From: Bacteroides fragilis NCTC 9343
Lineage (GTDB): Bacteria; Bacteroidota; Bacteroidia; Bacteroidales; Bacteroidaceae
DNA: 64,000 bases
Direction: 5' to 3'
Assembly: GCF_000025985.1 (NCBI RefSeq)
Contig: NC_003228.3
Span: 2,790,001 to 2,854,000 of the forward strand
In this document: in pieces, positions 40,545-47,664 of the stretch
Position numbering within the stretch: the first letter of the stretch is position 1
Layout of the letters: every line of letters begins with the position of its first letter
Notes under the pieces: generated by a model
The model's input: only the letters and a program-made list of their open reading frames with translations
The model's database searches: none
What the model was told of the DNA's origin: nothing
Program-made: the position numbers and the translations under genes

Positions 40545-40766
40545 ATGGAAACAAAAAATCAAAATAAGATAGTGACGGCGCCCTCCCTGGAAAATACACA
40601 GGAACTTTACGAGATTTACCGCCAAAGATACGGGGCTGACAAGACCCCGGAGGACTTTTACCGGTTTATGACAACCCCCGGCGTGGAAAGGCGATCCTTT
40701 CTGCTTGAGAATACCCAAGCGCGGCCGCTATCCATTAATAACACGATCATTCATAAGTGCGTATGA
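40545..40766 (+). CDS. Small tail-region protein (73 aa)
   Basis: From ATG 40545 (METKNQNKIV). Its stop overlaps the ATG of the next gene (ATGA, 40763-40766), so the two are translationally coupled. An in-frame start 8 codons upstream is possible. Function unknown. Confidence 0.55.
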   Translation: METKNQNKIVTAPSLENTQELYEIYRQRYGADKTPEDFYRFMTTPGVERRSFLLENTQARPLSINNTIIHKCV

Positions 40767-41956
40767 GTTTCGAGATTATCAGAAAAACCGGAGAGATCGC
40801 CTTTGTGGCAAACCCTATCGCCTTTGAGGTAAAAACCTCCGGGGAGGCCGAAATTGAAATCCGTCTCAGGGTTGGAGCACAGGAGGTGTTTTCAGCCTCC
40901 TACGTACCTTTTGGCGACAGGATCCATTTCGACATTGCCGAAATCTTACAGCCCTTCGTTACTTCCGGACCCTTGGAGGACTCGGAGGATCTGATCCTGC
41001 CCGTATCCGGTTTTATGGCCGGTTACACGCTCGAGGTGAAAGGGCAGGAGACCCGGACACTCACCGGCAAGGTGATATGCGGGGGGATCAGCAAACAGGC
41101 GGCAAGGGAAATGGCCGGCAGGGGAATGGACTTTATCCTGAACCGGCTCAGGGATTATTCATCGCAATTCCTCTTTACCACGCGGACCCGCGGGAAGCAT
41201 ATTGCGATAAGGGAAACCGAGGTCTCCCCCCTGATCTTCATTCATCCGGACAAAAGGATACAGGTGGAATCCGAATATGGAAACAGAATAAAACTGCCTG
41301 AAGGGACAGCCGGAGAAATTTATGCTTTAAACATAGGGCGGATCCGGCGGGAGTTTTTCCACAAGTATAACCAGATCGTGTCATTCATCCGGGTATTGGT
41401 GCCGGCCGAAGAAGCCTTTGACATCTCTTTCACACCCGGGGAAGTGTCAGAAAACGGACTGTCATTTCTCTTCAGAAACTCTTTGGGATGCTATGAAGTG
41501 ATAGAAATGCCGGGGAAAATGATTTGCTCCCTTGACCGGGGGGATGATGAAAACTACCGGACATTCGATGAAGAGGGCGGTGATTATATAACCGGACGTC
41601 CAAGGCCCGACCTCCTTCAAAAAATGAAGCTGAATACAGGATTCAAGAGAAAAACAGAGCTGAAATTCATTCAGGACCTGCTCTCCTCGGATGATATCCG
41701 GCTGCTTAACGGAACCGCCCGAAGGCGTGTACTGGTAACTTGCGAAGAGTACGGTTATGAAGAACCCATGAAGGAGCCGACATCCCTGGTGCTCGATATC
41801 GAGGTTGCCGAGCGGGAATCCAATTACACCCCGGACATGGACGGGGAGAACGCCCCACCTTTCATCGAACTCCTGCCCGGGGAGGTGGAAATACCCTCAG
41901 AAGGAGGGCAGGTCAGGGTACGGGTCGAATCAAATATCATGTGGGAGGTGGTTTGA
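40763..41956 (+). CDS. Tail-tip protein ending in half a BACON domain
   Basis: The 397-residue protein is beta-rich with no signal peptide. Its C-terminus (about 365-397) reads PPFIELLPGEVEIPSEGGQ...VESNIMWEVV and stops just after the conserved Trp of a BACON domain, so only the N-terminal half of that fold is present. One base after its stop the left inverted repeat of an invertible cassette begins. The next gene starts with a C-terminal BACON half. I infer it is the base to which the variable fibre protein attaches. Confidence 0.65.
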   Translation: MSFEIIRKTGEIAFVANPIAFEVKTSGEAEIEIRLRVGAQEVFSASYVPFGDRIHFDIAEILQPFVTSGPLEDSEDLILPVSGFMAGYTLEVKGQETRTLTGKVICGGISKQAAREMAGRGMDFILNRLRDYSSQFLFTTRTRGKHIAIRETEVSPLIFIHPDKRIQVESEYGNRIKLPEGTAGEIYALNIGRIRREFFHKYNQIVSFIRVLVPAEEAFDISFTPGEVSENGLSFLFRNSLGCYEVIEMPGKMICSLDRGDDENYRTFDEEGGDYITGRPRPDLLQKMKLNTGFKRKTELKFIQDLLSSDDIRLLNGTARRRVLVTCEEYGYEEPMKEPTSLVLDIEVAERESNYTPDMDGENAPPFIELLPGEVEIPSEGGQVRVRVESNIMWEVV

Positions 41957-41957
41957 T

Positions 41958-42091
41958 TCCTAGTTCTTACGGAACTTGGAAAATACCCCGGACGGGGAGT
42001 GAAAGCAAAGCGAATTAAAAACAGTAGAAATCATTTAATAAATTACAAGTATGGCAAAAGCAAGTTGGTGCAATGTAAGCCCCATGTCAGG
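41958..42091. repeat. Left inverted repeat of the invertible cassette
   Basis: These 134 bases match 43313-43449 in reverse complement with one substitution and one 3-base gap. The repeat covers the 5' leader, ATG and first 14 codons of the downstream gene. It contains AGTTC-TTACG-GAACT (41962-41976), a possible recombinase crossover site. Confidence 0.95.
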
Positions 42092-42674
42092 GAGCAAGAA
42101 CGGTACTTTAACGATTAGTGCAGGAGTTCACACAGGACGTACTGCAAGAAGCACGACGGTCACAGTGACAGCGGCAAACGGAACGAAACCTTCTGCCACG
42201 ATAGCGGTATCTCAGGCAGGTACAGGAGTATCCACAACAATGGATGCAAACAAGCCTGATCTTCCTTCTTCCGGAGGAGTCGTTAACATAAACGGAACGT
42301 CTAATAGTTCAAAATTAAAGTGGACCTGTACCGCAAGAGTTATGGGAGTAGATATGCCTATAGACGATAATTATGTAAAAGTGGCGGTAAACGGTGGGAA
42401 TATAGGAAATAATGTGGCTATTCCGGGGGACCCCGGAGCATCGGGGAGTTTTAACTTTGTGGCGACATTAACTTTTCCCGCTTCGATGTTTCCGGTTGAC
42501 GCTGTAGTGACTTTTAGGCTGACGGATGATACCGATTCAGCTAAACAATGTACTTTCACTTGGAAAGCGGGTGCGTCTTCTCTTTCAGTGAACAAGTCCT
42601 CTTTATCATTGGTTAACGGTGGAACCGGGCAAACCGTAAATGTTACTTCCAATGATGATTGGAACGTCTCTTAA
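42051..42674 (+). CDS. Variable tail fibre protein A with circularly split BACON halves
   Basis: The 207-residue protein starts with a C-terminal BACON half (about 3-57: ASWCNVSPMSGSKNGTLTI...IAVSQAG). It has a central beta domain (about 60-170) that differs from its partner B, and ends with an N-terminal BACON half (about 173-207: LSVNKSSLSLVNGGTGQ...SNDDWNVS). Joining end to start gives one complete BACON domain. It is in the expressed orientation behind the late operon. BACON domains bind mucin or glycans, so a receptor or mucus-binding role is likely. The leader lies in the inverted repeat. Confidence 0.75.
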   Translation: MAKASWCNVSPMSGSKNGTLTISAGVHTGRTARSTTVTVTAANGTKPSATIAVSQAGTGVSTTMDANKPDLPSSGGVVNINGTSNSSKLKWTCTARVMGVDMPIDDNYVKVAVNGGNIGNNVAIPGDPGASGSFNFVATLTFPASMFPVDAVVTFRLTDDTDSAKQCTFTWKAGASSLSVNKSSLSLVNGGTGQTVNVTSNDDWNVS

Positions 42675-42687
42675 GAGGTAAAGAGAA

Positions 42688-42720
42688 AGGATAGGAAGCG
42701 CCTAAATCGCGACCTATCCT
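42688..42720. terminator. Bidirectional terminator between convergent fibre genes
   Basis: AGGATAGG (42688-42695) pairs with CCTATCCT (42713-42720); further partial complementarity flanks it. It lies at the centre of the invertible segment and so ends transcription in either orientation. Confidence 0.65.
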
Positions 42721-42726
42721 TGCTTC

Positions 42727-43353
42727 TTATGATACTGCCCATTCGTCATTGGAGGTAACGTCTACCGTTTGTCCTGTCCCTGCATTCACAAGCGATAGCG
42801 AGGACTTGTTCACCGAAAGAGCAGATGCTCCCGCTGCCCATTTAAATTGGCACCTTACCATTTTTCCTGCACTGTCAGTCACGTCAACATTAGGAGCTAA
42901 CGGTGTGGGCAACGGATTGCGGGCTATTTCCAGTTTGATGGAAAACGCATAAGAACCGTTCGCTCCGGGGTCTCCTGGGATAGTAACCGTCTCTGAGGCG
43001 GCAAGCACTTTGTCAGTAATTCCCGGAGCATTGAATTTTGCGGAAGCGGTAACCCCCGGAAGGTTAATCAGAGGAACCGATATTTTCAATGTCGGGCTGT
43101 TAGAGTTCCCGTTAATAGTGACAGACCCTCCTTCTCCGGGTAAATCCGGTTTAGAGGTATCCATCGTTAATTGCACTCCTACGCCGGCTTGCGATACCGC
43201 TATACTGGCCGAGGGTTTCGTTCCGTTTTTAGCCGTGACGGTCACTGTCGTACTGCGGGCCTCCCGTCCGGCATGTGCTGCCGCACTGATTGTTAAAGCC
43301 CCGTTCTCACTTCCTGACATGGGGCTTACATTGCACCAACTTGCTTTTGCCAT
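42727..43353 (-). CDS. Silent-orientation tail fibre protein B
   Basis: The 208-residue homologue of protein A: same N-terminal BACON half (ASWCNVSPMSGSENGAL), same C-terminal half (LSVNKSSLSLVNAGTGQ...SNDEWAVS), but a diverged central domain (about 60-170). It points against the late operon and has no evident promoter of its own, so it should be silent until the segment inverts. Intact frame and conserved ends show that it is maintained by selection rather than decaying. Confidence 0.75.
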   Translation of the reverse strand: MAKASWCNVSPMSGSENGALTISAAAHAGREARSTTVTVTAKNGTKPSASIAVSQAGVGVQLTMDTSKPDLPGEGGSVTINGNSNSPTLKISVPLINLPGVTASAKFNAPGITDKVLAASETVTIPGDPGANGSYAFSIKLEIARNPLPTPLAPNVDVTDSAGKMVRCQFKWAAGASALSVNKSSLSLVNAGTGQTVDVTSNDEWAVS

Positions 43354-43449
43354 ACTAATCGTAATTTATTAAATGATTTCTACTGTTTTAAATTCGCTTT
43401 GCTTTCACTCCCCGTCCGGGGTATTTTCCAAGTTCCGTAAGAACTAGGA
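43313..43449. repeat. Right inverted repeat of the invertible cassette
   Basis: The 137-base partner of 41958-42091. It covers the leader, ATG and first codons of gene B. The match stops abruptly at 43449 on the outside, while on the inside similarity fades into homologous coding sequence. Confidence 0.95.
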
Positions 43450-46069: not shown

Positions 46070-47314
46070 TCATTTCAAGTTCTCTAAATAATCAAGCACC
46101 TGTCGGTTGGCTTTGTCCACTTTCTCCATATCATAATCGATATAAATACTTGTAGTTTTACACCCAAATTCATGACCAAGGGCCAATGAAATAACATCTT
46201 TTGACACTCCTATTTTATGTGCTATTGTCGCCCATGTATGACGCGCCCAATAAACCGTTAGCTCTGGAAATAAGGGAAAGCGTTTTTTTACTCGTCTTCT
46301 TTTACCATTAATCACCTTTTCTACTAGTTCAACACTTCCGATCTCTTGGAGGTTTTCATTAAGTCTGTGAGCGTAATCTTTATAATTCTTGTAACGCTCA
46401 AGAATATTAAGTAAATACTTACTTCCTTTGTATCGTTCGATTATCTCGGCTGCTTCGGGTTCTACTTTTATATTATATATTTTCTTAGTCTTAGCCCTTC
46501 GATATTCAATTCTGCCGTTTCTAATTTTCTCCAAACGACATAAATCAACAGTATTTATGCCTACAAGATAGAAAATTAACATAAAAATATCGACATATTG
46601 CTTCTGATGCTCTTCGCAAGGATAATCTCTTAGAGTCACAAGTTCCTCTGGAGTCAATGCCCTTTTTGCAGTTGCCTCTTGTTTTATTTTAAATCTCCTA
46701 AATGGATAACATGAAATAGTTTCAGTATTAAGAGCATCATTAAATACAGCTCGGATATTTCTCATGTGAATACTAATCGAGTTAACTTTAGAGGTCTCTG
46801 AAAGATGAATCTCAAAACTCTTTAGCCAAGCATAGGTCACATCTTCAAATCTAAACTTATCTGGTACATCCACAAAACGACATATACGATCAAGTGTATA
46901 TTGGTAGACTGCCTTCGTTTGGGGATTTTTCTTTCCTTCCACAAACCTTGTATAATACTGCACAAAAGAACATCCAGTTTCTTCCTGTTTCTCCTCTAAT
47001 TTTCCCCTCAATAATATTCGTTGAAGATGCTCCTTGAACTGTTTTCCTGTCATTAAGTCCAACTTTCCGGCAATCCTTAAATTCAATAATTCCGTTTCAG
47101 CACAATGCACTCGCTGGGAGATATAGCCATTAAGGAATGACTTGTTAGGACCATTGATCACCTTTCCTTTTGTGGAGTCCCACTGATCTGGAGATAATAA
47201 AACACCAAGATTGATTAAGGCCTGCTGCCTTTTGTGTGTGACATTAATTTTAAGAGGAAACTTTCCATCTTTCCTATTCACACGTTTGTCGAAATACAAT
47301 TTAATAGAAGCCAT
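46070..47314 (-). CDS. Phage integrase, Bacteroides-type tyrosine recombinase
   Basis: The 414-residue protein has an N-terminal arm-binding domain (about 1-90), a SAM-like core-binding domain (about 108-205) and a C-terminal catalytic domain (about 215-410). Catalytic residues seen are Lys in YRRAKTKK, the box ARHTWAT (His-Thr replacing HxxR as in this family), GH in ISLALGHEFG, and the nucleophile Tyr in TSIYIDYD. The first catalytic Arg position lies in GINTVDLCRL. It is next to attR and reads away from it, so it should catalyse insertion into tRNA-Pro. It is the only site-specific recombinase gene seen here. Confidence 0.92.
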   Translation of the reverse strand: MASIKLYFDKRVNRKDGKFPLKINVTHKRQQALINLGVLLSPDQWDSTKGKVINGPNKSFLNGYISQRVHCAETELLNLRIAGKLDLMTGKQFKEHLQRILLRGKLEEKQEETGCSFVQYYTRFVEGKKNPQTKAVYQYTLDRICRFVDVPDKFRFEDVTYAWLKSFEIHLSETSKVNSISIHMRNIRAVFNDALNTETISCYPFRRFKIKQEATAKRALTPEELVTLRDYPCEEHQKQYVDIFMLIFYLVGINTVDLCRLEKIRNGRIEYRRAKTKKIYNIKVEPEAAEIIERYKGSKYLLNILERYKNYKDYAHRLNENLQEIGSVELVEKVINGKRRRVKKRFPLFPELTVYWARHTWATIAHKIGVSKDVISLALGHEFGCKTTSIYIDYDMEKVDKANRQVLDYLENLK

Positions 47315-47350: not shown

Positions 47351-47477
47351 TCGGCATCCGAAATGCCCAAAATTCATCCAAATAATGCAATTAAACTCTT
47401 TTTTTTTTAATGACTATTAGCAGAAAAAAAATGCCAATAATCAAGTTCTAAAACTTAAATATCAGCATTTTTCTTTG

Positions 47478-47552
47478 TCGGGGTAGCGGGATTCGAACCC
47501 ACGACCCCCAGCTCCCAAAGCTGGTGCGCTAACCGGACTGCGCTACACCCCG
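47478..47552 (-). tRNA. tRNA-Pro (UGG), copy inside the prophage boundary
   Basis: The reverse complement folds as a normal cloverleaf: acceptor CGGGGTG/TACCCCG, anticodon loop with TGG, T-loop GTTCGAATC. CCA is not encoded. It differs from the next tRNA only in one anticodon-stem pair, changed on both sides (CCAGC/GCTGG versus CCTGC/GCAGG), so pairing is kept and both should work. Confidence 0.95.
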
Positions 47553-47587
47553 AAACACTTGTAAAAAAAGAGAACTTCCTTTTTCTT

Positions 47588-47634
47588 TGTCGGGGTAGCG
47601 GGATTCGAACCCACGACCCCCTGCTCCCAAAGCA
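47588..47634. other. attR: right copy of the 47-bp att repeat
   Basis: Identical to 6483-6529 and lies within the intact tRNA-Pro at 47590-47664. The insertion therefore restores the tRNA gene with phage-supplied 3' sequence. Confidence 0.9.
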
Positions 47635-47664
47635 GGTGCGCTAACCGGACTGCGCTACACCCCG
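47590..47664 (-). tRNA. tRNA-Pro (UGG), integration target
   Basis: Complete cloverleaf with TGG anticodon, discriminator A and no encoded CCA. Its 3' 45 bases belong to the att core. It is separated from the other tRNA-Pro by 37 bases; both share the flank TTTTCTTTGT. Confidence 0.95.

What the first reader, a model, noticed from the sequence alone, without database searches (positions are those of the whole stretch)
41858..43353. BACON domain split across protein boundaries: possible head-to-tail fibre polymer
Proteins A and B begin with the second half of a BACON domain (ASWCNVSPMSG...AVSQAG) and end with the first half (LSVNKSSLSL...SNDxWxVS). The upstream tail-tip protein also ends with a first half (VEIPSEGG...SNIMWEVV). 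The break is at the same place each time, just after the conserved Trp. A C-terminal half from one chain and an N-terminal half from the next would complete the fold, so subunits could polymerise with the tail tip as seed. The expressed subunit is exchangeable by inversion. I know of no described phage fibre built this way.
Basis: inference. Interest (0 to 1): 0.92.

Follow-up and report, generated by a model that had tools for sequence, protein, structure and literature searches.

The report
Split BACON joints linking phage fibres
Many gut phages appear to hold neighbouring tail-fibre proteins together by cutting one small folded domain in two, so that the end of one protein and the start of the next complete each other like plug and socket; this prophage has such a joint on a fibre gene that it can probably swap by flipping DNA.

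Summary
A and B start with the second half of a BACON domain and end with the first half; the tail-tip protein ends with a first half. The cut is exact: 107 of 120 listed A homologs have Trp at residue 6 and three residues after the last Trp. In 31 of 41 loci the protein upstream of A ends in a first-half motif (random ORF triples 3.6%); in 25 of 41 a start motif of the other half follows (5.3%). The A profile tiles two solved BACON domains in permuted order. X-end and A-start co-diverge robustly; A-end and Y-start only weakly. I read this as fold complementation joining separate proteins into a chain X-A-(Y). The A/B inversion is probably B. fragilis 'invertible region Q' (PMC3090145). Its repeat core recurs before host SusC-like genes.

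The parts
40763..41956 (+). Tail-tip protein X (397 aa from ATG; the ORF list gives GTG 40757)
   Evidence: homologs P0121-P0124 start at this Met and keep the BACON-half end; remote homologs P0127 and P0128 lack it
41861..41953 (+). First BACON half at the end of X (..VRVESNIMWEVV)
   Evidence: nhalf HMM 15.8 bits, residues 369-398; scores as an A-class end, +10.5
41958..42051 (+). Left inverted-repeat arm
   Evidence: 94 nt, 97% complementary to 43356-43449
41962..41976 (+). Palindromic core AGTTC TTACG GAACT
   Evidence: near copies lie upstream of SusC-like host genes
42051..42674 (+). Protein A (207 aa), the subunit now facing the tail-tip gene
   Evidence: AlphaFold2 pLDDT 94.2, pTM 0.81
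42051..42221 (+). Second BACON half at the start of A (residues 1-57)
   Evidence: PF13004 positions 8-61, 40.6 bits
42222..42572 (+). Ig-like middle domain of A (residues 58-174)
42573..42671 (+). First BACON half at the end of A (last 33 residues)
   Evidence: nhalf HMM 55.9 bits; dN 0.11, dS 2.14 against B
42727..43353 (-). Protein B (208 aa), alternative subunit in reverse orientation
43183..43353 (-). Second BACON half at the start of B
   Evidence: PF13004, 42.6 bits
42829..43182 (-). Ig-like middle domain of B
   Evidence: 37% identical to A; fold inferred from A
42730..42828 (-). First BACON half at the end of B
   Evidence: nhalf HMM 56.7 bits
43356..43449 (-). Right inverted-repeat arm
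43431..43445 (-). Palindromic core of the right arm

Best explanation
The BACON domain is used here as an inter-protein joint. It is cut in one loop between two genes, so the upstream protein ends with the first half and the downstream protein starts with the second half; after translation the halves meet and complete one Ig-like fold, joining two separate chains without a covalent bond. X (tail tip or adaptor) carries the first plug; A has a socket at its start, an Ig-like spacer, and a plug at its end. In most relatives that last plug is followed by the start of Y, a fibre or fibre-adaptor protein. In this prophage no Y is recognised; the likeliest partner of A's end is the start of another A, so that A (or B after inversion) may form short chains seeded on the tail tip. 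Inversion replaces the exposed Ig domain and keeps the joint. Shown by sequence: exact conserved split, co-location, selection on both ends, co-divergence of X-end with A-start. Inferred: the physical joint, and self-chaining in the window.
For: 107 of 120 listed homologs have Trp at residue 6 and exactly three residues after the last Trp; 104 of the 106 full-length ones start Met-Ala, which favours Met removal (rule recalled). Abutted Trp-Trp distance is 9, or 8 without Met; 26 of 35 X ends with a Trp also have three residues after it. In 24 intact single-chain BACONs of other proteins the distance is 8 (18), 9 (4) or 10 (2); these were picked by adjacent HMM hits, so long loops would be missed. 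X ends: strict motif in 31 of 41 loci, against 32 of 2811 background ORFs of 60 aa or more and 3.6% of random triples of ORFs; 1.95 candidates per locus on average. Y starts: 26 of 41 by motif, one false (L005), against 90 of 2811 and 5.3% of triples. Of 14 Y proteins given to Pfam 8 match BACON near the start, 3 above cutoff (L010, L056, L067); 6 do not (L009, L012, L045, L048, L053, L069). A second X family: 31 of 55 have Trp exactly fourth from the end, two of them without a BACON-like end. The A profile matches solved 3zmr as end (residues 9-39) then start (42-92), and 8va4 likewise (35-64, 67-121). X-A gaps in 29 loci fall in frames 9/12/8. Purifying selection on both halves, A against B: dN 0.10, dS 1.26; dN 0.11, dS 2.14 (dS near saturation). 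Partial correlation of divergence given the Ig part: X-end/A-start 0.54 in 23 loci with Y (0 of 999 permutations) and 0.44-0.59 after near duplicates are removed (0-4 of 999); non-partner controls X-end/Y-start and A-start/Y-start stay between -0.22 and 0.06.
Against: No structure shows two chains sharing a BACON. A's halves could close on each other within one chain; the AlphaFold model of A is confident at both ends, but the tool gives no coordinates, so contacts could not be read, and A-end/A-start co-divergence (0.34-0.61 after near duplicates are removed) fits closure as well as chaining. A-end/Y-start is weak: 0.27 (11 of 999), but 0.21-0.28 with 71-121 of 999 after near duplicates are removed, so not significant; exchange of Y between phages could explain that, or the A:Y joint is less specific than I propose. 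X-end/A-end, which should not touch, also co-diverge (0.41-0.48), so common history is not fully removed. No Pfam BACON model matches at the ends of the X proteins scanned. In the PDB comparison the first-half stretches alone are weak (2.2 and 3.3 bits), and only the two best of six listed chains were viewed. Y starts differ from A starts around the Trp. cr127_1 (L068) lost the socket Trp while keeping the plug Trp.
Confidence: 0.76

Rival explanations
1. Joint X-A is real, but A is single and terminal in this prophage; its end is kept for another partner (a Y supplied elsewhere, unrecognised or recently lost) and does not chain.
For: In most relatives A's end is followed by Y. A recent loss of Y would leave A's end conserved. 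The Y model is built from other phages and could miss a different Y.
Against: No Y start recognised in the window or the B. neonati stretch, or in the host genome beyond A, B and three weak matches in long ORFs (E 0.02-0.04); A's end is under purifying selection between A and B; in two second pairs without Y, X ends are 70% and 54% identical to A ends (L018, L020); A-end/Y-start co-divergence is weak.
Confidence: 0.38
2. Self-closed monomer: A's own end folds onto its own start as a circularly permuted BACON, and the end of X plays another role or displaces it.
For: AlphaFold2 gives both ends of single-chain A pLDDT of about 90; A-end/A-start co-diverge.
Against: It leaves unexplained why X proteins end in the same half and Y proteins start with the other half in locus after locus. 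The ends flank an Ig-like domain whose termini lie at opposite poles in known V-type folds (recalled, not measured here).
Confidence: 0.17
3. A broken gene: X and A were one protein, split by insertion of the inversion site, by sequencing error, or joined in life by frameshift.
For: Stop and start fall inside a BACON domain.
Against: Same split in 107 of 120 listed homologs; frames 9/12/8; no X-A fusion among the 120 listed A homologs (up to 248 aa; 182 of 302 unlisted), 8 tail-tip homologs (up to 397 aa) or 55 homologs of L020-X (up to 385 aa); three relatives checked have only 21-22-nt imperfect inverted repeats in the stretches searched, not a long pair.
Confidence: 0.03
4. The ends are conserved as DNA homology arms for shuffling of fibre modules, not as a protein joint.
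For: P0005 and P0006 combine a B-like start with an A-like end (by eye); connectors are the conserved parts.
Against: Differences between A and B in the connectors are mostly synonymous: protein rather than DNA is kept. The same protein ends occur in A homologs under 40% identical to the window's A.
Confidence: 0.04

Closest known systems
BACON domain (Pfam PF13004, PF19190; solved in a GH5 enzyme, PDB 3zmr)
   Same: Sequence and, by tiling, order of the two halves in the domain
   Different: Known BACONs lie in one chain; here one domain is shared by two gene products. PMC6949934 (passages found by term only) treats tandem BACONs in single proteins. PMC9853417 (passages) notes that the BACON of BoGH5A bound none of the substrates tested, which fits a structural role
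Donor-strand complementation in pili (chaperone-usher, type V; recalled) and TasA fibres (PMC9674648, search listing only)
   Same: An Ig-like fold completed by a stretch from the neighbouring subunit, head to tail
   Different: Here about 30 C-terminal residues would complete an N-terminal half; no export signal is apparent; the setting is a phage tail, and the chain is mostly an ordered series of different proteins
Ig-like/BACON adhesins of gut phages (PMC13370021; abstract, passages and section 7 read)
   Same: BACON-bearing phage proteins near structural genes, crAss-like and myovirus-like phages
   Different: There they are displayed as epithelial adhesins; a joint between proteins is not discussed in what I read. 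A binding role of A's Ig domain is compatible with the joint
Invertible tail-fibre cassettes of Mu and P1 (recalled)
   Same: Two alternative fibre genes between inverted repeats
   Different: Here the fixed and variable parts are separate proteins meeting at the split domain, so inversion would swap whole genes; no serine invertase was seen among the ORFs beside it
B. fragilis invertible region Q (PMC3090145, section 17 read)
   Same: Two hypothetical proteins whose orientation flips, absent from 638R together with a phage-associated region; very likely this cassette
   Different: Proteins, BACON halves and joint are not described in that section
crAss001 tail fibres (PMC10172136, passages only)
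   Same: A trimeric tail-fibre protein (gp22) docked in the hub that holds further flexible fibre proteins
   Different: Those fibres were poorly resolved; the word BACON does not occur in the paper (count)

Membership tests
BACON domain | Profile match of the domain's second half | tested here: met
   PF13004, 40.6 and 42.6 bits, cutoff 25
BACON domain | Whole domain on one chain in usual order | tested here: not met
   Halves at opposite ends of A; order permuted against 3zmr and 8va4
BACON domain | Loop length between the two conserved Trp | tested here: met
   9, or 8 after Met removal, if end and start abut; intact controls 8-10 in 24 of 24
Donor-strand complemented polymers | Subunit with an incomplete Ig-like fold | tested here: inconclusive
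   Start of A lacks the first part of PF19190; monomer model confident but contacts unread
Donor-strand complemented polymers | Neighbour supplies the missing strands | not testable with these tools
   No multimer prediction; sequence pairing only
Donor-strand complemented polymers | Sec export of subunits | tested here: not met
   A starts MAKASWCNVSPMSG, no hydrophobic signal stretch (read by eye; no signal-peptide program was run)
Invertible phage fibre cassette | Inverted repeats around alternative fibre genes | tested here: met
   94 nt, 97%
Invertible phage fibre cassette | Own invertase next to the cassette | tested here: inconclusive
   Only a tyrosine recombinase at 46070-47314, probably the integrase
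Invertible phage fibre cassette | Both orientations observed | not testable with these tools
   One assembly; region Q in PMC3090145 is the nearest report

The most novel reading that the evidence does not exclude
Split Ig/BACON halves are a general plug-and-socket for tails of Bacteroidota phages. Where the fibre protein Y is missing, as here, A polymerises head to tail from the tail tip, and the host's own SusC-type recombination system, sharing the site core, flips which subunit is built, tying phage fibre choice to host surface switching.
Probability: 0.3. Interest if true: 0.92.

Novelty: new variant of a known kind. Interest (0 to 1): 0.82.

Why it matters
It would give a simple rule for how fibre parts of common gut phages (crAss-like records, and contigs that look siphophage- or myophage-like by eye) are joined and exchanged: genes are cut inside the joint, so any payload with matching halves can be swapped. 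It offers a reason for BACON domains beside tail genes that does not need sugar binding, lets gene boundaries predict protein contacts, and gives a direct structural test. A natural set of split Ig pairs is also of use for protein assembly.

Tried and rejected
Single-query scans of IMG/VR with A and with the tail tip, and tblastn of A in INPHARED, found nothing; alignments and P0079 worked. Genome scans found the family rarely: 4 of 158 genomes of the genus, 2 of 393 of the order, 1 of 399 of the family draw, own genome included each time. Of 14 genome-contig loci only L025 is a close relative with the same ends; the others look like ordinary BACON proteins, and most of these served as intact controls. 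PHROGs and NCBIfam list no family for A or the tail tip at the thresholds used. PDB fold searches listed Ig-like and other beta-sandwich chains, by VIA-align over the middle domain almost only; the halves were barely tested there.

Natural X-A fusions were looked for and not found within the length limits and listed rows. The ungapped end classifier misplaced L020' (-13.7) and was undecided for L005 (-1.0); L018' could not be scored. So the pattern 'X-end looks like A-end when Y is absent' rests on the window (+10.5), P0122, P0124 and on pairwise identities for L018' and L020'; for the window pair itself that identity is only 29%. The classifier sets hold near relatives, which flatters it. Trp-to-Phe change in X-end and A-end together with loss of the socket Trp in four crAss-like loci (L069, L070, L090, L091) is one clade and is contradicted by cr127_1; treated as weak. 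The Y motif missed L017, L055, L058, L063 and L070, which look like Y starts by eye. The X motif missed 10 of 41: L001-B (turned away from X), L005, L007, both A genes of L018, both of L020, L044, L058, L062; several show a half by eye.

Paper searches for the idea: (open-licence PMC only, no bioRxiv); going by titles and abstract starts, and by the passages opened, none describes a BACON or Ig domain split between phage proteins, but most subscription papers are not held. PMC4747536 was searched for the site motif without result.
Full report
What is there. The window is G000:C1:2790001-2854000 of a 5,241,700-base genome in two contigs, the larger 5,205,140 bases.

A and B match Pfam BACON from residue 3 to 56 (40.6 and 42.6 bits, cutoff 25) and the longer BACON_2 only from its position 40. 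The missing first part is at their C-termini and at the C-terminus of X. Identity of A and B is 49/57 in the starting half, 28/33 in the ending half and 44/118 in between: joint constant, payload variable.

It is a conserved architecture. A search with A found 302 homologs, 120 listed. Of these 120, 107 have Trp at residue 6 and exactly three residues after their last Trp; the other 13 are short, truncated or odd-ended. 104 of 106 full-length members start with Met-Ala, so Met is probably removed (removal rule recalled). Abutting such an end and start gives a Trp-Trp distance of 9, or 8 without Met. In 24 intact BACONs of other proteins it is 8 in 18, 9 in 4 and 10 in 2 (picked by adjacent HMM hits, so long loops would be missed). 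The split would thus cost no residue.

The neighbours carry the other halves. From IMG/VR, INPHARED and genomes I collected 62 A genes, 41 distinct. Directly upstream, 31 of 41 have an ORF ending in a strict first-half motif, against 32 of 2811 other ORFs and 3.6% of random ORF triples (on average 1.95 candidates were looked at per locus). Downstream, a start motif was found in 26 of 41, one of them false (L005), against 90 of 2811 and 5.3% of triples. Of 14 Y proteins given to Pfam, 8 match BACON near their start, 3 above cutoff (L010, L056, L067), and 6 do not. Three Y proteins continue into the glycine-rich PF12810 domain (L022, L061, L053), which fits a fibre. Some Y frames overlap A by 1 to 16 bases, counted from the first possible start codon. 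X-A gaps in 29 loci run from 0 to 94 bases in all three frames (9/12/8), so the chains are separate. X proteins exist with and without the half: of 55 homologs of one X family 31 end with Trp fourth from the end (two of them not BACON-like), and most of the other 24 are shorter or end otherwise; two remote tail-tip homologs lack it too. The half looks like an add-on plug.

The halves belong together. An A profile against the PDB matches the solved BACON domain of 3zmr twice: A's end on residues 9-39 and A's start on 42-92; 8va4 likewise (the two best of six listed chains were viewed). The end matches are weak alone (2.2 and 3.3 bits) but lie where a permuted BACON requires. In a divergence test that controls for the Ig part, X-end/A-start reaches 0.54 in 23 loci with Y (0 of 999 permutations) and non-partners do not rise (X-end/Y-start 0.06, 264; A-start/Y-start -0.03, 602). 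With near duplicates removed at 80, 70 and 60% identity, X-end/A-start stays at 0.44-0.59 (0 to 4 of 999) and A-end/A-start at 0.34-0.61 (1 to 46 of 999). A-end/Y-start, 0.27 with 11 of 999 at first, drops to 0.21-0.28 with 71 to 121 of 999. So the X:A joint is well supported, the A:Y joint rests mainly on co-location, and the link of A-end with A-start fits chaining or self-closure. X-end/A-end also co-diverge (0.41-0.48), so common history is not fully removed.

What happens in the window. No Y start is recognised in the window or around the B. neonati relative, nor elsewhere in the host genome beyond A, B and three weak matches in long ORFs. Still the end of A is under purifying selection: dN 0.11, dS 2.14 (near saturation) between A and B. 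In X-A-Y loci the ends of X and A are different classes (leave-one-out: 33 of 34 X ends and 37 of 37 A ends on the right side; near relatives are in the sets), and the window tail-tip end falls with the A class (+10.5), as do P0122 and P0124, although its direct identity to A's end is only 29%. In two further pairs without Y, X end and A end are 70% and 54% identical (second pairs of L018 and L020). A socket that must accept both the tail tip and the previous A would favour this. L005 (-1.0) and L020' (-13.7, a register slip) do not fit the classifier. I put self-chaining in the window near 0.4.

The switch. Both repeat arms hold AGTTC-TTACG-GAACT-TGG. In the host genome four further near copies (1-2 mismatches; reversed-pattern control 0) lie 146-250 bases upstream of genes that look like SusC (SusC named from sequence by eye). 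So the cassette may use the host's recombination system for outer-membrane receptor genes. [quoted passage not shown] this is most likely the same cassette. The inversion is therefore probably not new; the joint is, as far as the searches named under Tried and rejected reach.

Other roles. BACON-bearing proteins of gut phages have been shown to act as adhesins when displayed on another phage (PMC13370021; abstract, passages and section 7 read). That does not conflict with a joint: the Ig domain of A may bind while its ends connect.

Verdict. The better description is a split-domain joint between consecutive tail proteins; homopolymerisation is one possible use of it and remains to be tested.

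Noticed in passing
41962-41976, 43431-43445; L087:3499, L087:11353, L088:4128, L089:7596: The core of the phage inversion site recurs upstream of SusC-like host genes (2 exact copies in the window, 4 near copies elsewhere, control 0), suggesting a shared host recombinase.
   Followed up: partly
46070-47314 and 47477-47664: Tyrosine recombinase beside two tRNA-Pro genes with the same anticodon, a likely prophage attachment region.
   Followed up: no
P0005, P0006: Homologs with a B-like start and an A-like end, as if A and B recombine through the conserved connectors.
   Followed up: no
L069, L070, L090, L091: crAss-like loci where the socket Trp is lost and the plug Trp is Phe in both X and A; cr127_1 (L068) lost only the socket Trp.
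   Followed up: partly
L092:4001-4657 (csAssE-Sib): Orphan A-like gene amid non-tail genes, without X or Y beside it, with an extra C-terminal tail; annotated as glycosyl hydrolase family 5.
   Followed up: no
L068, L070: A homologs are annotated 'lipocalin-like protein' in crAss-like records; the sequence supports BACON halves and a middle domain like A's instead.
   Followed up: partly
L018:5452-7068 and L020:7164-10302: A second X'-A' pair without Y in the same phages, just before a gene that looks like a sheath by eye; A' is 355 and 746 aa, with InlB-type repeat matches in L018.
   Followed up: partly
P0011/P0031 and P0014/P0020: Pairs of different A proteins listed with equal longest-contig lengths (8435 and 1740 bases), possibly further A/B pairs on one contig.
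   Followed up: no
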